From: Parus major
Lineage: Eukaryota; Chordata; Aves; Passeriformes; Paridae
Direction of reading: 5' to 3'
Assembly (NCBI RefSeq): GCF_001522545.3
Contig: NC_031770.1
Coordinates: 27,959,747 to 28,023,746, forward strand
DNA length: 64,000 nt
Part shown: in pieces, positions 1,279-56,965 of the stretch
Numbering within the stretch: the stretch's first letter is position 1
How the letters are laid out: each line of letters opens with the position of its first letter
The notes under the pieces: model-generated
Database searches by the model: none
Told to the model about the DNA's origin: nothing
What the model saw: only the letters and a program-made list of their open reading frames with translations
Translations under genes and position numbers: made by a program

Positions 1279-1706
1279 NNNNNNNNNNNNNNNNNNNNNN
1301 NNNNNNNNNNNNNNNNNNNNNNNNNNNNNNNNNNNNNNNNNNNNNNNNNNNNNNNNNNNNNNNNNNNNNNNNNNNNNNNNNNNNNNNNNNNNNNNNNNNN
1401 NNNNNNNNNNNNNNNNNNNNNNNNNNNNNNNNNNNNNNNNNNNNNNNNNNNNNNNNNNNNNNNNNNNNNNNNNNNNNNNNNNNNNNNNNNNNNNNNNNNN
1501 NNNNNNNNNNNNNNNNNNNNNNNNNNNNNNNNNNNNNNNNNNNNNNNNNNNNNNNNNNNNNNNNNNNNNNNNNNNNNNNNNNNNNNNNNNNNNNNNNNNN
1601 NNNNNNNNNNNNNNNNNNNNNNNNNNNNNNNNNNNNNNNNNNNNNNNNNNNNNNNNNNNNNNNNNNNNNNNNNNNNNNNNNNNNNNNNNNNNNNNNNNNN
1701 NNNNNN
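1279..1706. other. Assembly gap (428 N)
   Basis: Unresolved bases between two halves of a pyrimidine tract. The real length is unknown. It is most simply a collapsed or unsequenced extension of the microsatellite. Confidence 0.99.
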
Positions 1707-7442: not shown

Positions 7443-7571
7443 TCAGTAGGCACATGACGGTTCTTCCACTGGAGCTATTGGGCTCAGCGGCTTCAAGGTG
7501 CTGAGGGAACGGAAGGCAAATGTGGAGGGATCATACATAAAGTGGGGTGGCGGGCGGCCTCCGTTGATGCT
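7443..7571 (-). CDS. Terminal coding exon of an unidentified minus-strand gene
   Basis: The minus strand shows a strong acceptor (a pyrimidine run ending TTTATTTCCCTGCAG), then 42 codons starting SINGGRPPPHF and ending EEPSCAY, followed by TGA. The peptide is Pro/Ser-rich with aromatics and looks like a disordered C-terminal tail. It is not low-complexity translation of noncoding DNA. The exon begins in phase 0, which matches the phase at the end of the candidate exon 10448-10495. I do not recognise the family. It could belong to a different gene from the exons above 29 kb, but strand, spacing and poly(A) placement favour one gene. Confidence 0.7.
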   Translation of the reverse strand, partial: SINGGRPPPHFMYDPSTFAFRSLSTLKPLSPIAPVEEPSCAY

Positions 7572-8736: not shown

Positions 8737-9442
8737 TTTAGAGCAGCCCTGCAGAAAAGGACTTGGGGATGGGGGTTGATGAAAAACTCAATGTGAGCTG
8801 GCTCTATGCGCTCACAGCTCAGAAAGCCAATGGAATCCTGGGCTGCATCAAAAGCAAAATGGTCAGCAGGTCAAAGGAAGTGATTCTCCCCCTCTACTCT
8901 GCTCCTGGTGAGACCCCACCTGGAGTACTGTATCCAGCTGTGGAGCCCCCAACAGAAGAAGGACATGAAATTGTTGGAGCAAGTCCAAAGGAAGACATGA
9001 AGTTGTTAAGAGGACTGGAGCACCTCCCCAGTGAAGACAAGCTGAGGAAGTTGGAGCTGTTCAGCCTGGGAGGAAAGAAGGCAGTATGGAGACCTCACAG
9101 GAACCTTCCAGTCCTGGAAAGGGTCTATAGGGAAGCCAGAGAGAGACTCTCCTTCAAGACCTGTAGTGACAGGATAAGGAGCTATGGGTACAAATTGGAA
9201 GAGGTGATATTTAGTCTAGATATCAGGAAGAAATCCTTTCCTGTGAGGATGGTGAGACACTGGAACAGGTTGCCCACAGAGGTTGTGAATTCCCCAACCC
9301 TGGCGGTGTTCAAGGTGAGGTTGATAAGGCCTTGAGCAGCCTGGTCTGATGGGAGGTGTCCCTACCCATGGCAGATGGGATTAGAAAATTAGATTAGATG
9401 ATCTTTGATGTCACTTCCAACTCTTAACATTCTACATGATTC
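8737..9442 (+). mobile_element. CR1 LINE, 5'-truncated 3' end of ORF2 plus 3' UTR
   Basis: The plus strand reads typical CR1 wording: GCAGCCCTGCAGAAAAGGAC at the start, then the end of the reverse-transcriptase ORF. A 190-codon frame is still open (8763-9335) and contains HWNRLPTEVV and FSLGGKKAVW. It ends in the CR1 3' tail (GATGATCTTTGATGTCACTTCCAACTC, then CTACATGATTC). Most of the element is missing, as is usual for CR1, so it cannot move. It lies antisense to the host gene. The open frame is transposon-derived, not a host gene. Confidence 0.93.
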
Positions 9443-18349: not shown

Positions 18350-18829
18350 TAACAGGAATGACGGATTTGTCTTTCCAAACAAGATGTGGGTCTGCTGGTA
18401 GATAAAACTAGCACTGAGAAATAAAAGAAACAATGGGAAGGTCTCCACTGATTGATGAATGGTAAAAAAGACATTTGCCTTTACAAACAAACTGTAGGTT
18501 TGCTGATAAATGAAAATTGGATATTGAAAGATGAAAGAAACAATGGGCAACACCATAAATTCCATAAGAATTAAGAGGGAGGGTTATACATTAGAGGGGA
18601 ATCTTAGGTATCAGGAAGTACCTGATACCTCTCAAGTACCTCAGCTGATGGGGAGAGAGGGACATACGGCTGGGAATTAGGATAAAAAGGAGGCTGTGTC
18701 TTCCAAAAATTTGAGAGACCCCAGGGGAATGTCCCATGGCCTCTCCCTTTATTCGAATAAAGTAAAAGGACTACTCTGTCTCCTTTTTGGACATAAACCT
18801 CTGGTGTTTGTGGATTAATTTTCCTGACA
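18350..18829 (+). mobile_element. 5' LTR of the provirus
   Basis: 480 bp, aligning end to end with 26299-26795. It ends in CTGACA. The start is TA where the 3' copy has the canonical TG, presumably a later mutation. A TATA-like GATAAAAAGG is at 18681 and AATAAA at 18756-18761. By eye it differs from the 3' LTR by about 6-8 % substitutions plus several short indels, which marks an old insertion. U3 holds a perfect 10-bp inverted repeat (18606-18630) missing from the 3' copy. Confidence 0.92.
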
Positions 18830-18831
18830 AA

Positions 18832-18849
18832 TGGGAGCTCTTTTCTGGA
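18832..18849 (+). promoter_or_regulatory. Putative primer-binding site
   Basis: Two bases after the 5' LTR, TGGGAGCTC resembles the start of a proline-tRNA-type site (eight of nine bases). The following nine bases are poorly conserved. The position is right; the tRNA assignment is tentative because the 3' half has decayed. Confidence 0.45.
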
Positions 18850-19046
18850 ACATTTCCACTGTCCAGGCCAGCGGGCAGCGAGCAGTGCTGAAGGTGCCTC
18901 ACCCAGTTTCAGTGATCAGCCCCCCTTGGTGGCAGCTGGCACTGGGCGATCGATTGGGTTCCCGAGACTGTCCAGGAGACAGACGAGTGGTGGACCAGGG
19001 GAATCCATGAAGAGTCCACAGGGAAGGACCACTTCAAATCTCACCG

Positions 19047-19052
19047 GTGAGT
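19047..19052 (+). promoter_or_regulatory. Putative retroviral splice donor
   Basis: CCG followed by GTGAGT in the leader, nine bases before the first gag-like ATG. This fits the major donor used for subgenomic env mRNA. It is inferred from consensus only. Confidence 0.4.
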
Positions 19053-19055
19053 AAA

Positions 19056-19250
19056 ATGGGATTTTCAGGAAGCAAACCTGGGAAGGCACCCATGGAGGGT
19101 AGCACAGGTAAACCTGGGAAGGCACCCATGGAGGGTAGCACAGGTAAAACAAGGCACCCATGGAGGGTTGCAAGGGTACACCCAGGAAGGGGCCATGGCA
19201 AAAGGGATGACAATCCCAAAATATCTCCAAAGAATCCCTTGGAAGAATAA
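19056..19250 (+). pseudogene. gag: gag remnant, N-terminal part with a 12-residue tandem repeat
   Basis: The frame opens with MGFSGSK, so Gly2 could be a myristoylation site as in retroviral matrix proteins, and runs 64 residues to a stop. It contains two exact copies of the 36-bp unit encoding KPGKAPMEGSTG (19075-19146) and a shorter third copy. After the stop no long gag frame is seen until 19746, so most of matrix and capsid is deleted or unrecognisable. The gag assignment rests on position and the N-terminal pattern. Confidence 0.5.
19075..19178 (+). repeat. 36-bp in-frame tandem repeat in gag (about 2.8 copies)
   Basis: Unit 1 is 19075-19110 and unit 2 is 19111-19146, identical to each other. 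A degenerate, shortened third copy runs to about 19178. The unit length is a multiple of three, so the encoded 12-residue segment repeats in frame. Confidence 0.9.
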
Positions 19251-19745
19251 GGAGTTGGTTTACACATTCTCCCACAGGTAATTAAGGATATAGATGCCCA
19301 AAAGGGTCAATAAGGGAAAGTCGAGAAGGGGTCTTGACACTCCATGCCCAGAGGGACAGTAAGGGGAGTTAAGGAGTCCTGACAACAGGGGATGGATGGT
19401 GTTGGTGTGTTGGAACAGAATTGATTGAAAGGGAGTATGGAGAGATACAGTTGAGGCAAGGAGCAGTAGGACCAGGCACAGAGGTGCAAGACCGAGAGCA
19501 AGGCTGGGGGTCTGTGCTGCTGCCGGCTGTGCCCACCAGGAGCGCCAGTGGGGGGAAGGAGCTGTTTGGACAATGCAGCAGGACAGGGACTAGCTCTGGT
19601 ATATGGTATGTGATAAACAGAGTGCATATAAGGAGGAAAGAATATCCAGGAAATGTAGATTGTATGTAGAAAGACTCAGATTTTCTTTTAAGGATTTTTT
19701 TTGGTTCACTGGAAAAACGAATGGTTTTGAGCTGTCGGAAAATAA

Positions 19746-20057
19746 GTACTCACAGGCAGTAGTGGGGAGGGATTAGAGGAAGAACAAAGTAAATCCCTGG
19801 GTGAACTGGTTAGAAAGATACAGAAAGTATACATTAAAAGGGATAAGGAAAATGAGAAAGCAAAGGTGAAGGTAATGGCAGAATTTTTACAGCCCAAGAG
19901 GGAAGAACCACAGGGCACAACAGGTCCCCCAGGACAGAAGGGATGGGATCAGCCACAAGGATGTGGCAGAGGCGTTCTCTCCCCAGCAGGGGAGACCCAA
20001 CCCAAACAGCAGCTGGGGAGGAACCAGTGTGCTGTCTGCAGGGCAGAGGGACACTAG
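19746..20057 (+). pseudogene. gag: gag remnant, capsid end and nucleocapsid
   Basis: A charged stretch (LEEEQSKSLGELVRKIQKVY) followed by Lys/Glu-rich sequence resembles the capsid-nucleocapsid junction of gamma-type gag. It then leads into a Gly/Pro/Gln-rich basic region and the first half of a zinc knuckle (CAVCRAEGH). The knuckle is cut by a TAG directly after the His, with another stop two codons later, and the last zinc ligand is lost. The conserved capsid core lies in the missing or degenerate interval upstream. Confidence 0.7.
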
Positions 20058-20213
20058 AAGTGAGAATATCTGCAAAAACAGCTGTACCCTCAGGAGAATG
20101 AAGTCCAGAGGATAACAGAAATGGATTGTTAGGGGTGTCAAGAGCTCCCATTGTACCAAGGACACACCACCTTCAAACCTTTGTTAACTTTTAAGGTGGG
20201 TCCAGATTGAGAG

Positions 20214-20735
20214 TGTTGCAGCGAGTGTTTACATTTATTCATACTTGCATGTTTAAGTTTGTCAGTTATATGATTCATTCTTGTGCCCTTCCCTGCTCCT
20301 TCCAAGCTGGTTTACCCCTAAGAGTTATATCCTCCCCTGAACTGCCCTTCATTGCAAATCCAACCCCTTATTCCTGAACCTTCCCTGCCTGTCACCACAA
20401 CCCTGCCCCTACCCCTTGTCCATCATTGTAAACCCTGCCCTTTTTTCTGGATCCTTCCCTGTCAATCCCTAACCCTTGAGACACCACGGGCCTATGTGAC
20501 CGGTCCTCTCCTCCCCCTCATCCCTTTTGGTCCCTGCATTGTAATCCCCTCTCTTCGCTCCTCCCTCCTGTATTCACCATTGGGTGTTTGTTCCCACCCA
20601 TTGAGTTGCTGCTCTATGAAATCCTGAACACAGACGTGCTCAGGGCTCTTCTGTCCCTGATCCCATTTGGCAATAAACCTGTTCTCAGAACCTCAAACAG
20701 AGAGCCTCCTCATCTTCCTTTGCCTGATCCTGACA
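20214..20735 (+). mobile_element. Probable nested solo LTR inside the provirus
   Basis: A C/T-rich, non-coding block interrupts the provirus between nucleocapsid and protease. It begins TGTTGCAGCGAGTG, has AATAAA at 20672-20677, and ends with CCTTTGCCTGATCCTGACA, a typical U5 ending in CA. The length (about 520 bp) suits an LTR of another, probably class II, family that recombined to a solo copy. I cannot find a clean target duplication, so the boundaries and identity are inferred. If correct, it is younger than the host provirus. Confidence 0.5.
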
Positions 20736-20859
20736 GTGGTTGATATCCTGCCTTTGCTGAGCTTATGGCTCAGAAGGTTCAACTCTGGGACCTACCCAGG
20801 CTGTTCCCCACTCCTGGCTCAAAGCTGGAGTGTTTCAGAGCTAGCCCACGTTCTGGCAG

Positions 20860-21147
20860 AACTGTGTCAGAGAGGAGGTGTATGTCCTAGTAAACACAGG
20901 GGGCTCTCAATCCACCTTAATTTTTATCCCTGATGGAGGGAAACTGTCAAAAAGATCATTGGTTATTCAAAGAGTGAGCGGAAAGGATGAGCAAGTGCAC
21001 TTTATTCAACCACTATTAATAGATGTGGAGGATGGGTTTGAAATGCATGAATTCCTGTTTGTTCCTAATTGTGATTGTAATTTACTGGGAAGGGATTTGG
21101 TGGCTGAAGTTGGAATGCAAATTAGCATTGTAAAAAATGACACATAG
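20860..21147 (+). pseudogene. pro: Retroviral protease remnant
   Basis: An open frame with VLVNTGGSQSTL in the active-site position of retropepsins and CNLLGRDLVAEVG as the second conserved block. The catalytic Asp of the usual DTG triad is Asn here (NTG), which by itself abolishes activity. The frame ends at TAG, 21145-21147. Upstream coding sequence is disrupted by the LTR-like block. Confidence 0.8.
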
Positions 21148-21204
21148 TCCAACACTGTGATATCTTAGTGTAAAATATCTGAGAAGGCTTATGCTGAAAT
21201 AAAA

Positions 21205-22409
21205 CTGGAAGTGTGGGCAGCCCCAGGGCAATATGGAAAACTAGACATAGAACCTCTCCAAATAACTTTGAAGCAACCAGGACAAGTGGTGTCTAAAAAG
21301 CAATACCCTCTTTCAAGGGAGGGAAAGAAGGGCTTACAGCCTGTCATTGAGTCCCTACTAAAGGCAGGTCTTTGGGAGCCCTGTATGTCTCCCTATAACA
21401 CCCCTATCCTGCTGGTTAAGAAACCAGATGGAACCTACAGAATGGTGCAGGATTTAAGAATAATAAATGAAATTGTCAAATCAAGGCATCCCATAGTTCC
21501 AGATCCCTATACAATCCTGAACCAGATCCCTTCTTCACATCAGTATTACTCAGTACTGGATTTGAAGGATGTTTTCTGGGAGTGTCCGATTACAGAAGAT
21601 AGTAAACAGTATTTTGCCTTAGAGTAGGAACAGGAGGAAGGAGGGAAAATAGTAAAACAACAATTGACATGGACAGCCCTCCCAGAGGGATATACAGAGT
21701 CACCGGTTTTGTTTGGGCAATCTTTGCAGAAAATATTAAGAGAGTTTACTCTACCCTCAGGAGTTAGGTTGTTGCAGGATGTGGATGATTTGCTTCTATT
21801 AGGGGAACAGGAAAAGGTGGTTGAGGAGGCTACTGTAAAGCTGTTTAATTTTCTTGCTAAAAAAGGAGTGTCTGAAAAGAAAGCACAATTGGTAGGAAAA
21901 AAGGTCTAATATTTAGGACACATTCTGACTGGAGCATTACAGTGTATTGATCTGGAAAGAATAAAAGGGGTTTTACAAGTACCATTATCCCAGACAAAAA
22001 AGTAGTTATGGCAGTTTTTAAAGTTGGTGGGGTACTGCAGAGTATGGATTGAGAATTTTTCTGTTGTGGCCAGACCTTTATATGACTATTTAATCTAAGA
22101 AATCCTAATGTCATGGTTTGGACACCAGAAGGAGAGCAAAGCTTTAGCAAATTAAAAGACAAATTAGTTAATGCCCTAGTCTTAGCTCTTCCAGACTCAG
22201 AAAAGAAATTTGAACTATATGTGGATGTTAAACAGGGTCATGCTAAAGGAATTTTGGTGCAAGAGCATGAGGGAACACGGAGGCCTGTTACCTGTTTTTC
22301 TAAGCTGTTAGACCTGATAGCCAGAGGCTGGCCCCATTGTCTGCAGAACAGTGCAGCCACAGCTCCGATGTTGGTTGAGGCCCGAAAGCTGACAAACGGG
22401 AGGGTATGA
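21205..22409 (+). pseudogene. pol: Reverse transcriptase remnant
   Basis: The longest open piece (21211-21627) carries the fingers and palm start: TPILLVKKPDGTYRMVQDLR and YSVLDLKD, with the first catalytic Asp. In-frame stops interrupt at 21625 and 21907. The catalytic box reads QDVDD where YVDD is usual, so the Tyr is replaced. The YLGH motif follows the second stop. A frame change then leads to the connection region (22113-22409). No single frame survives. Confidence 0.92.
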
Positions 22410-22659
22410 TTGTCAAAATTTCACATCCGATTGAAGGTTTGTTAACTGAGAAAGCCTCCAAGTGGGTGACCAGCGTTCGGTTATTACAGTATGAGTCCTG
22501 TTTAATGGAACAGGAGGATTTAGAATTTAAAAGCGGAAAAAGGTTTAACCCAGCCTCCTGTTTGAAGAGCCCTGAAGAGGGGGACCAGGAAGAAACCCAT
22601 GACTGCATTCAGGTGATAGATCTCCAGACCCAGGCGAGGGAAGATTTATGAGATACTAC

Positions 22660-23173
22660 CTCACCTGAATGTGAGAAAACGTGTTTATTGATGGGTCTTC
22701 AAGGATGGTAGAAGGGAAACTATTTACAGGATACTCTATCATGAATGGAAAGCAATTAAAGAAAGTGGGGAGGTTACCACACACCTGGTCAGCTCAGACA
22801 GCAGAGCTGTGTGCGCTTGTGAGAGCCTGTGAGTTATACCGGGAAGACAGTGAATATTTTTACTGATTTTAGATATGCATATGGGGTGATACATGCATTT
22901 GGGAAACTATGGGAAGAAAGAGGTTTATTAACCTTCAGGGGAAAGATGTTAGCTTATGAGAACTTAATCTCTTGCCTGTTGGAAGTGGTGAACTTACCAA
23001 AAAGGGTGGCAATAATACACATCAAGGAGCACCAGGCAGGGCACTCCGAGAAGGCAATAGGAAACCAACTGGCTGATGAAGAAGCTCGGAAAGCTTCACT
23101 GATGCCAGAAATCTCTAAGATCCTGCCCTTGCTCCCAGTAACTTCACCACTGCCAGCAAAACTGTCTTTATGA
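22660..23173 (+). pseudogene. pol: RNase H remnant
   Basis: FIDGSSR supplies the first catalytic Asp, AQTAELCALVRACELY the Glu helix, and after a frameshift near 22840 NIFTDFRYAYGVIHAFG the TD block. IKEHQAGH gives the final His region. This order (D, E, D, then H) is that of retroviral RNase H. The reading frame is split in two and is not functional. Confidence 0.88.
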
Positions 23174-24293
23174 CCAGAGAAACTTGAGATAATTAAAAAG
23201 AGTGGGGCAGAGGAAAGAGGGGATAATTGGTTTACAAGGGACGGTAAGCAGTGGATACTAAAAGCTCTGGCCTTACAGTTGTTAAAACCAACTTCATGAA
23301 GAAAGTCATTGGGGCTTCTGAGGACCGGCATTTCCTCAAAATGTATGCTGCTCTGGGTCTTTTTACTCTAGCAAAGTGAGCTATTGGGGGTTGCCTGATT
23401 CGTGCTAAAACAAATAACAGACTTAACAAAGAAACTTGCCAGGGGAGCAAGGCCTTGGGCTGCATGTCCTTTCCATAAATGCCAGGTGGATTTTACCCAA
23501 ATGCCCTGAGTGACAAGATTTAAATATCTTCTAGTAATAGTATATCAGTTAACAAGGTGGCCAGAAAGCATTTCCAGCTGTTTCAGCAACTACAGGATCA
23601 GTTATTAAAATATTTTTTGGTACAAATAATTCAAAGATATGGGATTGTGGAAGCAGTAGGCTCAGACAGGGGAACTCATTTTACAGGAAAAGTTCTTCAA
23701 GGAGTTATGACTGCTTTAGGGATACAAGGGATACAATGGAACCTCCATCCTCCTAGCATCCCCAGAGTTCAGGCCGGGTTGAAAGGATGAATAGGGAAAT
23801 ACAGAAACACCTTCTGAAGCTGGTGATAGAAACTAAGATGTCGTGGGTGCGGCTCTTGCCACTAGCTTTGGCAAGGATCAGGGCCAGACCCAGGGGGGAT
23901 ATTCAACTATCTGCCTTTGAATTGATGTTTGGAATTCCTTACCCTTATAATTCTCAGCCTAGTGGAGGGATAGAGATAAGTGATGTATATTTAAAACAAT
24001 ATGTGGCCCGGATACTGTCTCTTGTGAAATCTCTTTGACAGGAAGCTCAGCTGGCACAGACCCTGCCCTTGGACTTTGCTGTTCACAACATCCTACAGGG
24101 AATTGGGTCCTAGTTAAGGAGTAGAAAGAAGCACCACTGGTGGCTAAGTGGCATGGACCTTTCCAGGTGTTGCTGACCACAGAAACAGCCATCAAGAGAG
24201 CTGAACATGGGTGGACCCATCACACTCGGGTCAAGGTCTCTGAGGCCCCAGAGGTTTGGACATCTCAGCTGGAGGAGAAGGATGAGAAGCCGT
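23174..24293 (+). pseudogene. pol: Integrase remnant
   Basis: The catalytic core is visible as VGSDRGTHFTG, followed by the region of the catalytic Glu, which is broken by a stop at 23788-23790. It continues as a separate frame from 23787 (MNREIQKHLL... FELMFGIPYP). Near the end WHGPFQVLL is the GPF motif of gamma-type integrase C termini, followed by HTRVKV. Multiple stops make it inactive. Confidence 0.88.
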
Positions 24294-26240
24294 GACTGAC
24301 ACTCTGCAGGAGTGGATTGGAGCAGTAGCTGTGCGTCGACATCGGGGGAAGCCCCGAGTGCCTACCCACAGACTGCCTGCTGAAATAGTCTGTATGGGCA
24401 TCCCTACTCTCAGATCTCCAGACACTGGGGACCAATCCATGCTGTCATTGCTTTCTTTATGCTAAGCTGTTTCTGTGCCTTCACTTGCCACAAGTGGTGT
24501 GGAAGACAACATCAAAGTGAAAATTAGGTTAAGAAATTAGTTTATTAAAGTATTAGAATGTTTCTCTTAATAATCTTACCTTTGTATTGTCAGTTAGCTT
24601 AAAGCTAAAAGTGGGAAAGTAATTTTTTAACCTTAAGAGAAGAAGTAGCAAAAACCTTTAACCTTAGCAATTGTTAGGTCTGTGGAGAGCCAGGGGGATC
24701 TGAAAACTGGCCATGGGTGGCCAGCCCAGTCGAGCCTAAGTGGTGGGTTAGCACTCTGAGTGAGGTCCATAATCGAACAGGATTTTGGGACAAAGAAGGA
24801 AGTCCATGGCAGCTTCATTCTTCTGAAAGAGGCGTATATTGTCTAAATAGAACAAGTAGCATATATGTGGGAAAAATGGTCTGTGACTGGACTTTATCTT
24901 TGGGTTTAGATTGTTGGACCCCCAACTGCCGTCCTTATGATTGTTCCAGATATCATAGCAGATAGAATCAAATGCGTGTTAAGCTCACTAATGGTAGCTG
25001 GGAAAGGTGTTCCTTCCATAATTACCAACAGGATTTTGAAGGCTGTAAAGCAGTGGGGAATGATAAGTATTTTTTGACCCCTTATTTTTAAGCTGTCCCC
25101 AAGATAATTTCACAAGTAGGACACACGTTGTCTGTGACTATCAGTGGAAATGGCAACAACTGGAATGGAACTCAAACCCTTTTTAACAGGTTCTGGTCCA
25201 GATCTAACAAAATAGATCTGGAATGTAACTGCACGTGGAAATGTCATGTGGGAGCTGGGAAATACAAATACTGTGATTCTTATGGTGAAGCAACTATTGC
25301 TAGGAGACTACTGGGCCCAGGAAGCAAACTGTATTTTGAACCACCAGTTGATGATGAGAATTGGAAAGGTCCCTTTGCCAAAGAGACCTGGACTCTAAAG
25401 GGGCATTACTGGATTTGTGGACAATATGCTTACTGCCGGCTACCCCCAAACTGGTCAGGGATAGTTTATGTGGGGTGTATTAGACCATTGTTCTTTCTGC
25501 TACAACAAGTTCAGGGAAATCAGTTAGGAATCAAAGTATATGATGATATAATTAGAGAAAAGCAGTCAGTTGATGCATCCCTGGCTGGAGAGAGCACCCA
25601 AAAGTGGGGTAAAGACGAATGGGTACCTGAATAAATCATACAATACTATGGACCAGCCACTTGGAATTCAAATGAATTAATATCAAGTGCCAGAGAACTG
25701 ATTTATTATTTAAATCAGATAATTAGGTTACAAGCTGTCTTTGAAATAATAATTAACCAGACAGCTACAGCTCTTGACTTTCTTGCTGACCAATCTATTG
25801 AGATGAGAAATGCAATATTTCAACATTGGATGGTATTAGACTATTAATTAGCAAAAGAAAGGGGAGTGTGTGGCAAAAAATGACTCAAACTGCTGTTTGC
25901 TAATAGATGACAAGGGGAAGGTGATGAAACAAATAACAAAAGGAATAAGAAAGTTAGCTCATGTACCGGTCCAAATATGGAAAGGATGGAAATGGGACAT
26001 GTTTTCATGGTTACCTGGTGGACTGTGGATTAAATAAATGCTTTTTTTTCTCTTCTGTGTTGTAGCAACTCTGGTCTTTTTACCATGCATGATCCCTTGC
26101 TTAGTACAACTCATTCAACATGTGATCAAAGGAATGCAGGTAGTAGCCATGCCTACTGATCCAGAGATGGCTACAGAAGGACAGAAACTGATGTCACTGC
26201 AAATAATTTCAAAAGAAAAAGACCCAGGAACAGGAATTTA
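24294..26240 (+). pseudogene. env: env remnant (surface and transmembrane subunits)
   Basis: The surface subunit is seen in fragments: 24717-24965, with NRT glycosylation sites and many Cys, and an open 168-codon piece, 25128-25634, with several N-x-S/T sites and GHYWICGQYAYCRLPP. The transmembrane subunit follows in shifting frames: a heptad-like region near 25740-25850, then a Cys motif (C, seven residues, CC) near 25870, [13 protein letters not shown], a stop, and a hydrophobic anchor at 26038-26110. Stops and frameshifts break the reading frame. No convincing signal peptide or furin site could be placed. Confidence 0.85.
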
Positions 26241-26284
26241 AGTCAATGATAACTAAAGTTTGTAAAGATAATTATTAAAAAATT

Positions 26285-26298
26285 AAAAGAGGAGGGAT
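26285..26298 (+). promoter_or_regulatory. Polypurine tract of the provirus
   Basis: AAAAGAGGAGGGA plus one T lies directly before the TG that opens the 3' LTR, where plus-strand priming takes place in retroviruses. Confidence 0.8.
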
Positions 26299-26795
26299 TG
26301 AGAGGAATGATGGATTCATCTTTCCAATCAAGCTGTGAGTCTGCTGGTAGATAAAACTAGCATTGAGAGATAAAAGAAACAATGGGAAGGATTCCACTGA
26401 TTGAGGAATGGAAAAAAAGACATTTGCCTTTACAAACAAACTGTAGGTTTGCTGATAAATGAAAATTGGATATTGAAAGATGAAAGAAACAATAGAGAAA
26501 AAAACATTAATTCCATAAGAATTAAGAGGGAGGGTTATATATACATTAGAGGGGAATCTTAGGTATCAGGCATTCCGGGAAGTCTTTACCTCTCAAGTAC
26601 CTCAGCCTATGGGGAAAGAGAGAAGGGACATACGGCTGGGAATTAGGATAAAAAGGAGGCTGTGTCTTCCAAAAATTTGAGAGACCCCAGGGGAATGCCC
26701 CATGGCCTCCCCCTTTATTCAAATAAAGTAAAAGGACTCCTCTGCCTCCTTTTTGGACATAAACCTCTGGTGTTTGTGGATTAATTTTCCTCACA
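26299..26795 (+). mobile_element. 3' LTR of the provirus
   Basis: 497 bp, beginning TGAGAGGAATGA and ending CTCACA. A TATA-like element is at 26647 and AATAAA at 26722-26727. It pairs with 18350-18829. It differs in several short indels, notably around 26568-26590, where the 5' LTR has a palindrome instead. Confidence 0.92.
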
Positions 26796-26799
26796 ATTG
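26796..26799 (+). repeat. 3' target-site duplication of the provirus (ATTG)
   Basis: Partner of the ATTA at 18346-18349, with three of four bases identical. Confidence 0.55.
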
Positions 26800-27769
26800 C
26801 AAAACACAATTCACCATGCAAACACACTCTGGACGCTAAAATACCCGCAAGATGCGTGTGCCCCTGTCCCACTTCCAGTGCCTTGCTTCCAGTTACAGAC
26901 GTAACACTGGCTGACACTTCGAGGGACCAGGGACCAGGTCTGCACACTCACTCTGCCCAGCTCGTGTACAACACCACATAGGCCAACACCTGTCCCTGAC
27001 CTTGCAGTGGCATGTGCTTTGCTACATTTACCTATTATGTACAAATCCATAGCTCACGTTCATGCTGTTGGGTGCTGAGTTTCCTTCCTTTGTACTAATG
27101 GAATCCCACCCTCCCATGTTGCTACAAAACTAACTATGGGGTACTTAAGAAAACCAAAAGAGTGTCTAGACTCAGGGTAGAGGGGAGGGGATACCTGGAG
27201 ACTCGGACAGGAAAAAAGATGGAAGCTGGGGAGCTACTAGGGCTCTCGCTCTGCGTTTCAGAGGATAGGCAGGCTGTTGCTTACTGCGAGGAGGATTCAC
27301 TGTCACTGCTGGAGCCCAGTCCTGTACTGTCTCGCCCCTCTGTGTCCTGCTGGGAGCCTGTCTGACTCTATCCTGTCCCCCTTGCTCTTCAGCACTGCTC
27401 CGAGCCTTTTCTGCACTGTAGCCCAGCACCTCCTGCCTGCCGAGGCCTCCCCCTGTTCCAACCACAGCTCAGGAGCTTCTGATACATCTTGTCATACACC
27501 CTGGGATTTTTGCTCATTCCTGCCGGCCCAGCTTGCTGTTCCCGTAAGTCCTGCTGGAACACCGGGATCGATTGCCCCAGGGGGGTTTGTGCAGCAAAGC
27601 CTCTCTCCCATCCTCTCTCCTCCCCGTGCCCGCGCCCCAGCGGCCCCTGCAAGCGCAGGGGAATCACCGCACCTGCCCGGTCCCCTGGGAGCACCAGTGC
27701 CCCTGCCGGCTGTGCCCGGAACTGCATGGAGGGGAAAGTGCCTGCAGCTGAGAGAAGGTGATCACTGGG
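26800..27769. other. GC-rich intronic sequence, possibly more of the adjoining LTR
   Basis: From about 27280 to 27760 the sequence is markedly GC-rich with local CpGs, unlike its surroundings. It continues smoothly into the recognised LTR end at 27770-27977, so part may be the body of that LTR on the minus strand. Long open frames on both strands here follow from the base composition. 26800-27200 shows nothing recognisable. Confidence 0.35.
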
Positions 27770-28334: not shown

Positions 28335-28664
28335 GAGGGTAGAAGAAATGAAGACAGATCTCTTAGTGATGGGTTGACAAGCTATTACAGGAGGAACCAG
28401 GCAGCTCTCTGAGCAGGAAACATCACCATGTTAACCACTTTGCTTGTGTCACTGTATCACTGATGCACACATGTTTCAGCTCTTTCTGACCCGAGATCGT
28501 CACAGATATCCAGACAGTGTACAGCTGGATGAAGATGCAGTGAGTGAACTATCTGAGGAGCAGGCAGAATATATACTGGCTTGTGCCAGGGATTTGAAGT
28601 AAGGATCCTTGCTTTCTCCCTTCAGTTTTCTTGCTGCTGAATAACTTGTAGGAGAAAGGATGGT
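28335..28664 (+). repeat. Left arm of a 330-bp inverted duplication
   Basis: This segment is the reverse complement of 29029-29358. Comparing the arms by eye over their full length gives three mismatches in 330 bases (about 99 % identity) and no indels. Two mismatches are CG against TG. The arm starts GAGGGTAGAAG and ends AAAGGATGGT; outside these points similarity stops abruptly. It carries an inverted copy of the host exon. Confidence 0.95.
28506..28598 (+). pseudogene. Inverted copy of the host exon 29095-29187
   Basis: All 93 bases are identical to the exon in the right arm, but on the opposite strand from the gene. The copy keeps acceptor-like TCACAG and donor GTAAGG on the plus strand. 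Within the host pre-mRNA it can only act as antisense to the exon. It could be spliced only if transcription came from the plus strand, for instance from the upstream provirus or its LTRs. Confidence 0.85.
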
Positions 28665-29028
28665 CCAGGTCACATGCTTAAGAAAGACTCCCAAGGACCA
28701 CAAACATTCCAAAGGCTGTAGCTGTGTTTCCATGTTAGAGGGCAAAGACACTGCCCCTCCATCTCATCTTCCCATGGGAGACTCTTCCAGATGAAGACAG
28801 AGGAAGCAATAGCTGTAATGATGCATGAGAAAACAACACTTTGCACCCTGACATGACAGCAAAGCCCCAAGATGTCAAGGCAACCAAAGGATCAGCCAGG
28901 AGGAGGGGTTTCTAAAAAGCAGGCATCATGTCACAACCACATGAGACGCTGATCTGAGCAAGAACAGGATGAAAATGTTTCACTGGTGATATTAGAAGGT
29001 CACTGTCCTCACACAAGATGGAATAAGC
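28665..29028. other. Spacer of the inverted duplication
   Basis: 364 bp of single-copy sequence separating the arms. It has no recognised repeat or gene, and would be the loop of the predicted RNA hairpin. Confidence 0.7.
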
Positions 29029-29358
29029 ACCATCCTTTCTCCTACAAGTTATTCAGCAGCAAGAAAACTAAAGGGAGAAAGCAAGGATCCTTACTTCAAA
29101 TCCCTGGCACAAGCCAGTATATATTCTGCCTGCTCCTCAGATAGTTCACTCACTGCATCTTCATCCAGCTGTACACTGTCTGGATATCTGTGACAATCTC
29201 AGGTCAGAAAGAGCTGAAACATGTGTGCATCAGTGATACAGTGACACAAGCAAAGTGGTTAACATGGTGATGTTTCCTGCTCAGAGAGCTGCCTGGTTCC
29301 TCCTGTAATAGCTTGTCAACCCATCACTAAGAGATCTGTCTTCATTTCTTCTACCCTC
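29029..29358 (-). repeat. Right arm of the 330-bp inverted duplication
   Basis: Partner of 28335-28664. Because the host gene is transcribed from the minus strand, this arm is transcribed first and holds the exon in sense orientation, with intron sequence on both sides. It is therefore the likely original copy. Confidence 0.95.
29095..29187 (-). CDS. Internal exon of the minus-strand gene, lying inside the inverted repeat
   Basis: The minus strand reads an acceptor (CTGACCTGAGATTGTCACAG), then 93 bases, then donor GAA with GTAAGG. In the frame entered with one leftover base it encodes YPDSVQLDEDAVSELSEEQ followed by AEYILACARDL, an acidic and probably helical segment. Entry phase 2 matches the exit of exon 41259-41319, and the junction codon would be AGA (Arg). 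The exit phase is 2, so another exon with that entry phase must follow. The arms are identical throughout the exon. The family is not recognised. Confidence 0.75.
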
Positions 29359-31032
29359 ACCACAACAGACAGATTCCAACAATGAATCTGTACCACCAGA
29401 CCCTCAGCAACAGAGCCAAACCTCTCACTTTGCCTCCAGATATCACTCTTTCCAAAAGCCCACATTCAGTAGGGCCTCAGAATAGCCCTTCAAATAGAAC
29501 TTAGGTCCCTAGTGTGCCCTGACTCCATTACTGAATGTTGGACAACACCCAGAAATCACAGAAGGGGGGTTGAGGTTGGCAGGCAGCTCTAGAGATGGCT
29601 GAGTTTAAACCCCCTCCTCTGATCAGGGTCAGCAGAAGCCTGTTGCCCAGGACTGCATCCTGGCACACCGTGACTATCACCATGGACAGAGATTCCACAA
29701 TTTCTCTGGGCAACCTGAATATCTTTTATTTTGACTAGTGCCCATTACCTCTTGCTCTGCTGCTGGGCAACAATGAGAAGGAATACTTTGCCAAGCACAT
29801 CCTGCTGGCTGGACTGAGCTTTCCCTTTATATGATGAGAGCATGGCACTGTCTTTCTGAAGTATTGACCTCTTTCAGCTGTTTGCAGAGCTGAGACACTT
29901 AGCAAAAAGTTCTGCCAAGGACCTGCTGCTTCCTTTCTCAGCTGGGTACACAAAAGTGGGCAATCAAAATCACTTGAAAATTGGAGGCAAAAATGCACCT
30001 TTACTTAACAACTCTGCCACCACAACAGACCAACAAGAGGTGGCAACATGCTATTATCATGAAGCCACAAGTACCTCAGGTGGAGAGGCAGCTTGGCAAG
30101 ACTGGCCAGAGAAGAGTGTATTTTGTGCCATCTGTCAGAAAAGTACACTCTCAGTTTCTGCTGTTTATTTTACTGCAAGCTGACATGGGCTTAAGGAGAA
30201 AAGGGATAATTCTCCTTGCAGATTCTCCAGGGGCGCAATAGTAAGGCACAATAATGGGCTTAAGGTGTAAGGAAATCACCTCACTAAAGCATCACTGAAA
30301 CCCAAGGGACTAGAAAATCATCACCAAGCACCACTGGAAACAGCTGGTGTCCAGGGACAGACATCCAGAAAAAAAAACAGTGAAAGCACACGGGGCAGGC
30401 AAAAAGGAAGGTGATAAACAAGATGTGCTAAAACATTGCAGCAGGATTAGACAGCTGGCAGGTCTGAAGGACAGGCACAGTCTGGGGAGAATTTGTGGGG
30501 CACAGGAGGACACAACTATATTGAGAACATTCCAGGCAGAAGCACATGAAAGCATGTAAGAGATCAAGATTAATTGTGCAATCAGAAGTACAGGTCACTG
30601 AGGGGCTGCTGGAAGACAGGACTGAAGAGTCCTGACAGAATGAATTTGAGATGTCAGAAAAATACCACCCCCAGCTCTGCACAAGGCTCTAGCCAGCTCT
30701 ACCCGCTCCTCTTCTCAGATACCAAATTCATTTCCAGAGCAGTGATGGGCCAGGACATCCAATGTCCTTATCAACTGCAGCACTTCTGGGTACACAAAGG
30801 CATTGTTCCTACTGCCTGCTAGGCAAGGTAAAAACCTTGAAAGGATCCTGGTCTGTCATTCATCCCTCTTGCAAGGCTGTAATAAACACTGCAGTGAAAA
30901 TAGCAGCTTCATCATGAAGGATACTTGTTTTCTACCCCCTAATCTGTTTTTGCCTGTGTATCACAAACATGGAGGATCATGTGGACTGAGGTACATCTGC
31001 TTTGGTGACAACATGCAAGGTCACACACAAAC
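29359..31032. other. Intronic sequence
   Basis: Unique intron between the inverted duplication and a CR1 copy. No further exon or repeat could be supported; open frames on either strand look random. Confidence 0.4.
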
Positions 31033-31650
31033 AGAATCTTAGAATGTTTTGGGTTGGAAGGGACCTTCAAGATTATCTAGTCTGAATGCCCCTGTGATGA
31101 CAAGGACACCTTCTACTAGGCAAAGTTGCTCAGAACCCCATCCAACCTGGCCACAAATTCTTCTTCCAGGGATGGGGCAGACACAACTTCTCTGGGCAAC
31201 CTGTTCCAGTGCTTCCATCCTCCTCACTGTAAAGAATTTAATCACAAAATCTAATCTAAATCTACTGTCCTTCAGCTTTTAAAGCCATTCCCCCTTGTTC
31301 TATCACTACACACCCCTGTGAAAAGTCCCTCTTCAGCTCCCTCATAGCTCCCTTTAGGTACTAGAAGATGATATGAGGTCTCCAAAGGAGCCTTATCTTC
31401 TCCAGGCATGGGCAGCCCCTGCTTTCTCAGCCTGTCTTCAAAAGGAAGGTGCTCCAGTCCTCTTCCCAACTTCATAGCCCTCCTCCGGACTTGCTCCAAC
31501 AGTTACATGTCTTTCTTCTACCAGGGACTCTAGAGATGGATGAAGCACTCCAGCTGAGGTCTCATCAGACCAGAGTAAAGGGAGAGAATCACCTCCCTCA
31601 ACCTACTTGTCACATTTCTCTTTGATTCAGCCTAGGATACATCTCCCACA
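31033..31650 (-). mobile_element. CR1 LINE 3' end, minus strand
   Basis: Begins AGAATCTTAGAATG and GGGTTGGAAGGGACCTTCAAG, the reverse complement of the CR1 3' tail. It continues through AACCTGTTCCAGTGC-type text (ACCTGTTCCAGTGCTTCCA), TCAGCCTGTCTTC and GAGAGAATCACCTCCCT. It is a truncated copy in the same orientation as the host gene, so its tail is present in sense in the pre-mRNA. It has many substitutions and is old. Confidence 0.93.
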
Positions 31651-33636
31651 GCACCACAGACCAAAATAAAGACAAAGTACCTACAAAGGAAGTAGGGGCT
31701 GGCTGATGAGTTCAAGAATGTGCTGCTAAGACAAAACTCTAAGAGGTGTAGACAACAAAATTTACAAAGACAAGACTTGAGCACACCTGATAGGGATGCA
31801 GGCTGTCAAGCATGGAGAGGCTCGGGACACTGCAGCTTCAGCCCAGTTAAAAAGTTATCTAAGCAACATAGTTTTTATTTGTCATCACACCCAGTTCCAA
31901 ATCCCATCTGGTTCTGCAAACACCAGTGCATCATGCAGGTACAGTTCCTTTCCCCCAGCTACCTACCAGACCTCTCACCCCTACCAAACACCACTTGGTC
32001 AAGAAGGATCCAAATGACACTCTACGGGACAGCTATGCTGTATGACGAGTTCATAACATGGGATGTAGACGTTCACACCAAGGAAGCTTTGAAACCACAG
32101 ACTCCAAAATGGAAAAGACAATGTATTATTACCCTTGTCAGCACCTAGCCTGAACTGCAACTACATTCTATACTCCACAGTAGCAACTTTTGTTATGCAG
32201 CTGATCAAGCCACAGAAAATCTCCAGAAATCATCTTCTGGACACAGATGTTCAATAAGAATCACCACATTAGGTATATGTGGAAATATGAAGGAACTGCA
32301 CCAAAAAAGGGCAACTTACACGAATTTTAATTACTCTAGTCTTTGCTCCACAATTATTCTTGAGCAGCATCTTCTTAAAGAGAAGTAGAATCCAGGGATT
32401 AGTAGAAATATCATGAACAGAAAGAGGGATATTGTAAGGAGTCCCTTGTAATCAACATTTCATTAAAACAAGATGGATGGATGGTCAAGGAAGATGGATG
32501 GAAAGATAAATATTACCAAAGGTGGCCGGCAAGTAATCAACCTAATCTGAGACTGTCTCACACAGCCTGCACAGAGTCCTCTGCAGTGGCTGATACCCCA
32601 GGTTTTGAAAGAACATACAAGAAATTTCACAAGGAAAGAGATAGAACAATTGCCTGAAAGGAAGTTTTTTCTTAATTTCTGTCGATTAGTGGTTAGACTT
32701 TGCCCTGAAGCAGGTGAATTTATCTTCCTTTACAAAGGAAAAAATGGTCTACTTCATGTAAATGTGGATGCTCCTATTATTTAACATATATTTTCATTAT
32801 GCTTATTTATTTAGAATTAAAAAAAAAAAACAAGGTAAAAGCGTCTGCCTGCAGCTCTAAATCTCTTTACCATATATTGCAAGAGTCATTACAGTTGTCA
32901 TAACATGAACCACACAACTTAGCAAACAGGATATACTTGAACCAGCAATTATTCTGGGAAATTACAGAAATAAATAGGTGAACTGAAGTTCTACCACAGT
33001 TTGGAGGCAGTGTTTTGAAAGCTGGCAATATCATTCTTTCCCCTAAAAAAGTTGTCACAAAACAACTCCCTTGGAAAAGCAAGGCTTCAAGAGAACAGTT
33101 CTTTCGTTTAAAAAAATATTTCAACTACCTTTTTCATACTGAAAACCTGGTGAGGGAGGCATGTCAGGAAGAATCTTCATCAGCTTTTGAAGGAAATAAA
33201 AGATTTTCCTAACTTCTGTTTCTAACACTTTTCCAGTTGGAAAGCTGTGTGAAGTGTTAGGAGAGCACTCCCCACACTCACATGCTTCTACAAAGCAACT
33301 GAAGTATTTTTCAGATGAAGTTCTTAAAGGTTGTAGAAAGACATCCCACCATTTTACCAATATGAGTGGTAAAGAGTGAGACTTTTCTATTTTCTCTCTT
33401 TTTGTTTGTTATCCTTCTGCTTTCTCTAGCACAAAGCAAGACAAAAGCAACACAGTATGGGGAGGCATGGAAACTCAAAAAGCTTAAAAAATCCAAAATA
33501 TACAAATAACCTCCAAAAAAATTCAGAAAAAAAAAGCACCACCCCAAAATTTAAGTCAAAGTAAGTATTAATTATTCTTCCAGTAGAAAGTACTGCTGGG
33601 AGGTAGGAAAAAGTCCCATTCCTCCTCCACCCTCGG
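31651..33636. other. Intronic sequence
   Basis: Nothing beyond short A/T-rich stretches (for example a poly-A run at 32820-32831) and short GGATG repeats near 32473-32500. No supportable exon. Confidence 0.4.
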
Positions 33637-41258: not shown

Positions 41259-41319
41259 CTGCACATGCCGAAGGTACCAAAGTTCAAGTAGTGGGCTTGC
41301 CCCTCCTGCTCACTAGAGT
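41259..41319 (-). CDS. 61-bp internal exon of the minus-strand gene
   Basis: On the minus strand, a strong acceptor (TTTGCACCCCTCCTCCTTTCACAG) is followed by 61 bases and a consensus donor (CAG with GTAAGT). In the phase-1 entry frame it encodes SSEQEGQAHYLNFGTFGMC and leaves two bases (AG). Those join the first base of exon 29095-29187 to make Arg, so the two exons are phase-compatible neighbours. The peptide has a clear domain-like core (HYLNFGTFGMC). The family is not recognised. Confidence 0.75.
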
Positions 41320-55136: not shown

Positions 55137-55627
55137 CTGCTGCATTTTTTCCAGGTCAAGGCTGGGCCTGCTGACCTTATCCCCATATCCTTGTCGATGT
55201 CTCTTATAAGGCATGACTTGCTCCAGGCCCGCCCCAACACTTGTGAAGATTAAACGTCCAGAGGCCGGGCTCCGTACCAGGGGCTGGAGTCTCTTGGGAG
55301 GGGAGGCACTGAACAGCACAGGGCTTGGGCTGGCATGGAGGCCATCGCCCTGCTCTGCCACGGGCCGGAAAGACATTGCACACAAGCTCTTCACTTCTTC
55401 ATCACTGGAGGAGGAGGTGTTGCCATTGCTGCAGCACGTGAGCTGGCTGACTTGGGACCACTTCCGCTTCTCTGTGGCAAACTCTCGGTTGATGTGCTCC
55501 AGCTCCTCTTCCGAGCTGTGGCGGTCAAGGCTGGCATGGAAGAAGGCCCGAACCTTGCAGCATTGGTTCTCTTGGTTCTGGAGTTGGTTTGTGGCCAGAG
55601 GACTCAGGGTACAATTCTGTCTTCTCT
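55137..55627 (-). CDS. Large Ser-rich internal exon of the minus-strand gene
   Basis: 491 bases between a strong acceptor (TCTCAATCTCCTCCTCCCACTAG) and a strong donor (CAG with GTAAGG), open throughout for 163 codons. In order it encodes Gln/Asn-rich sequence, RAFFHASLDRHSSEEELEH with charged helix-forming sequence (REFATEKRKW), a Ser/acidic cluster (NTSSSSDEE), a Pro/Ser-rich stretch, a short block SGRLIFTSVGAG, and a basic patch YKRHRQ that could be a nuclear localisation signal, ending LDLEKMQQ. It begins in phase 1 and joins exon 56893-56965 to give a Glu codon. It looks like an intracellular, largely disordered regulatory protein. The family is not recognised. A 156-codon plus-strand frame over the same bases is a shadow. 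Confidence 0.85.
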
Positions 55628-56892: not shown

Positions 56893-56965
56893 CTCTGTCG
56901 ATCTGAGCAAGTTCCTGGTTCTCTCCAGAGTCATCACTGTCTTCATCACTTGGGGGATAGGAGAT
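56893..56965 (-). CDS. Acidic internal exon of the minus-strand gene
   Basis: The acceptor (TTTCTTTCTCCTTGTCCCCTAG) is strong and the donor is AGAG with GTAAAG. The 73 bases encode 24 residues beginning ISYPPSDEDSDDSGENQ and ending AQIDR, then leave one base that completes a Glu codon with the next exon. The SDEDSDDS run looks like an acidic or CK2-phosphorylatable segment, an inference from composition. Another frame is open through this exon but does not fit the neighbouring phases. Confidence 0.75.

What the first reader, a model, noticed from the sequence alone, without database searches (positions are those of the whole stretch)
28335..29358. Inverted duplication that captures a complete exon: predicted exon-sequestering hairpin
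Seen directly: two 330-bp arms with three mismatches by eye, a 364-bp spacer and abrupt edges. The right arm contains the 93-bp exon 29095-29187 with its splice sites in gene orientation, and the left arm contains the exact antisense of the exon. Inference: the pre-mRNA would fold the exon and both splice sites into about 330 bp of near-perfect RNA duplex. Established knowledge: such duplexes are ADAR substrates, can cause exon skipping, and can promote circular RNA. The exon parts are identical while all differences are intronic, which would fit selection or gene conversion, or simply recent origin.
Basis: partly seen in the sequence, partly recalled or inferred. Interest (0 to 1): 0.8.

Follow-up and report, generated by a model that had tools for sequence, protein, structure and literature searches.

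The report
Intronic inverted duplication, exon claim unproven
A 330-base piece of DNA sits twice, mirror-fashion, inside a large intron of a little-known bird gene, most likely a copying accident; the "captured exon" that would have made it special has no support beyond its looks.

Summary
The inverted repeat is real in the assembly: arms 28335-28664 and 29029-29358, 327 of 330 bases identical, spacer 364, abrupt edges. A search of the 1.02-Gb genome found the arm at those two places only. It lies in an intron of a minus-strand gene whose exons match uncharacterized vertebrate proteins.

The "captured exon" (29095-29187) is weak. Its acceptor scores 1.9, against 6.4-15.1 for four host-gene acceptors. 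45 segments downstream of the 41.3-kb exon fit its thresholds and phase. Its peptide found no protein of about 165-525 or 519-1652 aa, and no other place in the genome. Shorter proteins, including the 124-aa isoform its frame would give, were not searched.

Edge sequence (4-bp ACCA/TGGT) suggests a fold-back template switch in which the right arm, carrying the "exon" in gene orientation, is the new copy. If transcribed, the intron would form an uninterrupted 330-bp hairpin, a plausible ADAR substrate. Exon sequestration is not shown, and the geometry is wrong for circularising this exon. Low interest.

The parts
28335..28664 (+). left arm of the inverted repeat (inferred original)
   Evidence: original by 4-bp edge homology
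28665..29028 (.). 364-bp spacer, no other copy in the window
   Evidence: whole-genome search of it did not complete
29029..29358 (-). right arm, inverted copy, 327 of 330 identical (inferred new copy)
29029..29032 (+). ACCA at the start of the right arm, repeated at 29359-29362 just after it; inverted partner TGGT at 28661-28664
29095..29187 (-). 93-bp exon-like stretch claimed as an exon; unproven
41259..41319 (-). exon-like segment with strong splice sites, in frame with the 93-bp stretch; unproven
56893..56965 (-). host-gene coding exon (ISYPPSDEDS...)
55137..55627 (-). host-gene large coding exon, 43 protein hits with a 138-aa part of it
32320..32373 (-). host-gene optional 54-bp exon (KMLLKNNCGAKTRVIKIR)
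7443..7571 (-). host-gene last coding exon with stop

Best explanation
An ordinary, fairly recent local inverted duplication inside an intron (between the optional exon at 32.3 kb and the exon at 7.5 kb) of an uncharacterized minus-strand bird gene. Shown: the two arms, their sharp edges, their being found at only two places in the genome, and the host gene on the minus strand. Inferred: during replication or break repair the growing strand ending in ACCA (now 29029-29032) folded back onto TGGT at the inner end of the left arm, copied 330 bases of it backwards, and rejoined the original template at the same ACCA, leaving an inverted copy on the right. Inferred consequence: when the intron is transcribed on the minus strand the two arms pair along their whole length (327 Watson-Crick and 3 G-U pairs), making an intronic double-stranded RNA that ADAR enzymes may edit. 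The 93-bp 'exon' is most likely a chance exon-like stretch, not a captured coding exon, so there is nothing to sequester.
For: Arms and edges. Two places in the genome. Host gene: 43 protein hits with the large exon, E down to 9.3e-75; exons in order on the minus strand; first coding exon on the same strand about 12.4 kb beyond the window. Edges: ACCA both starts the right arm and follows it, with TGGT at the inner end of the left arm; the other five comparisons printed gave 1, 0, 0, 0 and 0 bp. Chance of 4 or more bp at one junction 0.0054 in 200,000 simulated sites, about 3% for six comparisons. Fold-back duplications with a single-copy spacer and 2-8 bp of inverted microhomology are documented in human patients (13 of 21 sequenced junctions; PMC3907307, abstract and passages). 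Hairpin energy -775.3 kcal/mol for 1024 nt, pair counts; the right arm alone folds no better than shuffles (z = 0.05). Exon doubtful.
Against: The microhomology is only 4 bp, and no relative or unduplicated allele was available to show the ancestral state. The exon is not excluded: its frame is open, it joins the strong 41.3-kb segment in frame (CAG|A, arginine), and its codon score is in the top 7% of open windows of its length, better than the host gene's own 54-bp exon (27%). Proteins under about 165 aa or over about 1652 aa were not searched, and a chain from the first exons through 41.3 and 29.1 to the last exon would give only 124 aa. Transcription and editing were not observed. The assembly was not checked against reads.
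Confidence: 0.72

Rival explanations
1. One reading: the right arm holds a real, older exon of the host gene (spliced after 41.3 kb), the left arm is an inverted copy of it, and the hairpin hides the exon from the splicing machinery.
For: AG...GT boundaries, open frame, in-frame join to the strong 41.3-kb segment, which in turn enters in the phase left by the exon at 56893-56965; codon score in the top 7%; hairpin prediction.
Against: Weak acceptor (1.9); 45 segments with equal or better scores fit the same phase; no protein of about 165-525 or 519-1652 aa carries the peptide; the edges favour the right arm as the copy. In a minus-strand transcript the sense arm is made before the antisense arm, so splice sites could be recognised before the hairpin closes (inference).
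Confidence: 0.1
2. Assembly or library artefact: a fold-back chimera placed a false inverted copy in the assembly.
For: Fold-back chimeras are a known type of artefact (recalled); the window has an assembly gap elsewhere (1279-1706); the differences are few and all C/T.
Against: Three transitions, two of them at the only two CpGs of the left arm, look like ordinary mutation; a 330-bp copy returns cleanly into flanking sequence on both sides, with 364 bp of its own between the arms.
Confidence: 0.12
3. The stretch is a real exon or small gene of the plus strand, with the left arm intact and the right arm a dead inverted copy.
For: The left arm has an open frame of 55 codons around a 43-aa ATG-to-stop peptide, while the right arm has a TGA in it; the left frame scores in the top 4%.
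Against: 252 ATG frames of 43 aa or more occur in the window; none of the protein searches matched; no paralog in the genome; the plus-strand acceptor is as weak (1.1 or 0.4).
Confidence: 0.05
4. A transposable element with long terminal inverted repeats.
For: Shape: long inverted arms round a short middle.
Against: No other copy of the arm in the genome search and no shared short sequence just outside the two outer edges (GGAAGCAAA against ACCACAAC).
Confidence: 0.01

Closest known systems
Fold-back inverted duplication with a single-copy spacer (human inverted-duplication CNVs, PMC3907307: abstract and passages seen)
   Same: Inverted copy separated from the original by an unduplicated spacer; 4 bp of inverted microhomology at the spacer/duplication boundary (13 of 21 sequenced human junctions: 2-8 bp).
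   Different: Far smaller (330 bp; human spacers alone are 766-70,466 bp), interstitial, no terminal deletion seen; only one genome available here, so the event itself is inferred.
Small inverted triplications and templated fold-back insertions (PMC13334657 and PMC11724301: outlines and abstracts seen)
   Same: Small size, short spacer, short breakpoint homology.
   Different: Two copies, not three, and a spacer of 364 bp rather than about 30 bp; the yeast fold-back insertions are mostly 5-34 bp. No third copy in the window or in the genome search.
Intronic inverted repeats such as inverted Alu pairs, substrates of ADAR1 (PMC11263572: passages seen)
   Same: Two near-identical inverted sequences in one intron, predicted to pair in the pre-mRNA.
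   Different: Not a repeat family; no editing data; both arms in the same intron, so no pair flanking an established exon.

Membership tests
Local inverted duplication by fold-back template switching | inverted copy with sharp edges and a single-copy spacer | tested here: met
   spacer has no second copy in the window, its whole-genome search did not complete
Local inverted duplication by fold-back template switching | inverted microhomology at the spacer/duplication boundary | tested here: met
   4 bp; 0.0054 per junction by simulation, about 3% for the six comparisons
Local inverted duplication by fold-back template switching | unduplicated ancestral allele in relatives | not testable with these tools
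   states that this genome has no relatives held
Exon-sequestering hairpin | a real exon inside one arm | tested here: inconclusive
   no protein match in two length ranges, weak acceptor; proteins under about 165 aa not searched
Exon-sequestering hairpin | stable duplex across exon and splice sites in the host transcript | tested here: met
   predicted only: minus strand
Exon-sequestering hairpin | reduced inclusion or editing in RNA | not testable with these tools
   no RNA data
Circular-RNA-promoting inverted repeats | arms in the two introns on either side of an exon | tested here: not met
   both arms lie between the exons at 32320-32373 and 7443-7571; the candidate exon is inside one arm
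Transposable element with long terminal inverted repeats | further copies and target-site duplication | tested here: not met

The most novel reading that the evidence does not exclude
One copying event may have turned an antisense intron piece into a sense-oriented, splice-competent new exon and at the same time wrapped it in an unbroken 330-bp RNA hairpin: an exon born already masked, whose use would depend on the race between splicing and folding, or on ADAR or helicase activity. All three later mutations keep the duplex fully paired in the gene's strand (G-U), as such a constraint would predict, though chance gives this 1 time in 8.
Probability: 0.05. Interest if true: 0.6.

Novelty: new member of a known kind. 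Interest (0 to 1): 0.17.

Why it matters
If only the best explanation holds, it is one more small inverted duplication and a likely intronic ADAR substrate in a bird gene with no known function. It would matter more if spliced reads proved the exon, since a single mutation would then have created an exon and its own silencer together.

Tried and rejected
Identity of the exon: Pfam, PDB sequences and two protein searches gave nothing. One search used the joined 52-aa peptide as a region of a 300-aa query (candidates about 165-525 aa). One search used a 944-aa query (candidates about 519-1652 aa) whose region was set 8 residues too early, so 35 of the 43 peptide residues were searched. In each, 2 candidates shared words and none scored E <= 1. 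No control was run for the region mode; one search shows that the database holds bird and reptile proteins.

Coding exon of the host gene in its main frame: rejected for the 93-bp form after the exons ending in KMQQ or KIR, since entry in phase 0 meets a stop (read).

Polarity by CpG: the left arm keeps two CpGs, the right none. I first took this as a sign that the left is ancestral, then dropped it: at equilibrium CpG gains and losses balance, and three changes in one direction have p = 0.25.

A repeat crossing one arm edge would show which arm is original: none clear; the significant matches (nhmmer, 2 at E < 0.01) come from a remnant at about 29535-29717, outside the right arm. Rfam on 26.8-33.0 kb: 0. 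Viral contigs, one 30-base word of the arm: 0. GC-rich patch as promoter of a plus-strand gene: 1 of the 200-bp steps passed a weak CpG-island cut. A bacterial promoter/terminator scan does not apply to a bird and was not used.

Literature (open-access library only): 'dkey-16j16.4' 0 papers; inverted/antisense/duplicated exon with dsRNA and splicing, at least 4 of 5 terms, 1 paper, on Drosophila Y chromosomes; A-to-I, chicken, CR1, inverted repeats, editing sites 0; inverted duplication, exon, RNA editing, bird 2 papers, off the subject by title and abstract start; ADAR, chicken, inverted repeats and two more terms 13 papers, 8 listed, listing seen only; others (38 papers, 15 listed; 10 papers, 9 listed) gave the papers cited. 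These searches showed no report of this locus.

Full report
OBSERVATION. The inverted repeat is as described: arms 28335-28664 and 29029-29358, 330 nt, 99% complementary, 364 nt between them. The arms differ at 3 of 330 positions, each C in the left arm and T in the right arm in the same sense, and the flanks show no similarity. The window's self-comparison gives E = 6.8e-170. The window lies on a 111.6-Mb scaffold of a 1.02-Gb assembly, and the arm matches there at 2 places, the two arms. A whole-genome search of the spacer did not complete.

HOST GENE. A 138-aa stretch of the exon at 55.1-55.6 kb (minus strand) matches 43 proteins of 70 candidates, the best at E = 9.3e-75; named ones come from a gecko, snakes, a pheasant and fishes, three of them called si:dkey-16j16.4. 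By comparison with P0014, P0015 and others the exons in the window are 56893-56965, 55137-55627, the optional 32320-32373, and 7443-7571 with the stop. A first coding exon MLKILTKKLRSQSLNEIQSFQLK lies on the minus strand of L004, about 12.4 kb beyond the window. The gene therefore runs on the minus strand, and the inverted repeat sits in the intron between 32.3 and 7.5 kb. The only Pfam match of the large exon is far below its cut-off (FAM53, E = 0.38), so I do not name the family.

THE EXON. Its frame joins the segment 41259-41319 in phase (CAG|A), and that segment is the only one in the window, on either strand, of 50-250 bp with an open frame, acceptor at least 11 and donor at least 12. It may well be real. 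The 29.1-kb stretch is weaker: acceptor 1.9, against 11.7, 6.4, 6.8 and 15.1 for the four host exons; its donor (7.0) is within the range of the three host donors (6.6, 11.4, 7.0). On the minus strand 149 segments of 50-250 bp reach its two scores with an open frame. Between 41.2 and 7.6 kb, 45 segments of 30-250 bp (42 distinct acceptors) reach them and are open in the phase that the 41.3-kb segment needs, 20 of these at least 90 bp long; 20 pass the stricter host-like thresholds 6.4 and 6.6, which the 29.1-kb stretch does not. Its codon score is in the top 7% of open windows of that length; three host exons stand at 1%, 2% and 27%. The scoring matrices and codon table are recalled approximations of vertebrate values.

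The peptide finds no protein. The joined 52-aa peptide had 2 word-sharing candidates among proteins of about 165-525 aa, and 35 residues of the left-arm peptide had 2 among about 519-1652 aa; none scored E <= 1. In the own genome the 43-aa left-arm peptide matches the two arms only, the right one with a TGA. Against this stands a gap: a chain from the first exons through 41.3 and 29.1 into the last exon would be 124 aa, below the searched lengths. The exon is thus unproven rather than refuted.

WHICH ARM IS THE COPY. On the plus strand the right arm begins ACCATCC and is followed by ACCACAAC; the left arm ends GGATGGT. A right-arm insertion therefore has 4 bp of microhomology at one junction; the other comparisons printed gave 1, 0 and 0 bp for that model and 0 and 0 bp for a left-arm insertion. 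In 200,000 simulated donor-site pairs from this window, 4 or more matching bases occur in 0.54%, about 3% for six comparisons. The simplest reading is that the strand ending in ACCA folded back onto TGGT, copied the left arm outwards, and returned to where it left. Human inverted duplications show the same signature: a single-copy spacer and, at 13 of 21 sequenced junctions, 2-8 bp of inverted microhomology, against 0-4 bp in simulated spacers (PMC3907307, passages). If so, the sense-oriented stretch in the right arm was antisense to the gene before the event, and was not captured from an older exon. CpG content does not help to polarise the differences.

WHAT IT DOES. In a minus-strand transcript all 330 positions of the arms pair: 327 Watson-Crick and 3 G-U; in a plus-strand transcript the three become A-C mismatches. 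The 1024-nt fold has -775.3 kcal/mol (no shuffles at that length). The right arm alone folds no better than its shuffles (z = 0.05), so the stability comes from the duplication. That inverted repeats in introns are edited by ADAR1 and can shift splicing is described for inverted Alu pairs (PMC11263572, passages). Editing here is likely if the intron is transcribed in cells with ADAR, but it is inference. Circular-RNA promotion works by pairing across the introns flanking an exon (same passages); both arms are in one intron.

AGE. The arms differ by 0.91% (0.0091 after correction). With a recalled bird rate near 2e-9 per site per year this is roughly two million years, less certain if the arms exchange sequence.

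VERDICT. A real, probably young inverted duplication in an intron, found nowhere else in the genome; ordinary in kind; the exon part of the claim has no support beyond appearance.

Noticed in passing
window 18354-26796: Endogenous retrovirus on the plus strand inside the same host gene, with two long direct repeats 18354-18830 and 26303-26796 that are 90.5% identical and pol-like pieces between them (label recalled). Described only.
   Followed up: no
window 41259-41319, minus strand: Only exon-like segment in the window with very strong sites on both ends (11.4 and 12.6); in phase after the exon at 56893-56965; possible unannotated exon of the host gene.
   Followed up: partly
window 8835-9303 and 31166-31638: Two inverted repeat remnants, 74% identical, with a CR1-LINE-like open frame at 8742-9332 (name recalled; no Pfam match); a further remnant at about 29535-29717.
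   Followed up: partly
window 7443-56965 and L004:2355-2423: Host gene: conserved vertebrate protein without a Pfam domain above cut-off and without a paper under the one name searched; pheasant protein P0014 lacks part of the large exon, suggesting an alternative splice inside it.
   Followed up: partly
window 27451-27750: GC-rich patch (up to 69% GC, CpG observed/expected about 0.5) in an otherwise CpG-poor intron, about 0.6 kb from the left arm.
   Followed up: partly
window 28492, 28498, 28623 against 29201, 29195, 29070: All three arm differences are C (left) and T (right) in the sense direction and leave G-U pairs on the gene's strand; two hit the only two CpGs of the left arm.
   Followed up: partly
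window 1279-1706: Assembly gap of 428 N.
   Followed up: no
window 19074-19175: Tandem repeat with an offset of about 36 bp just inside the provirus.
   Followed up: no
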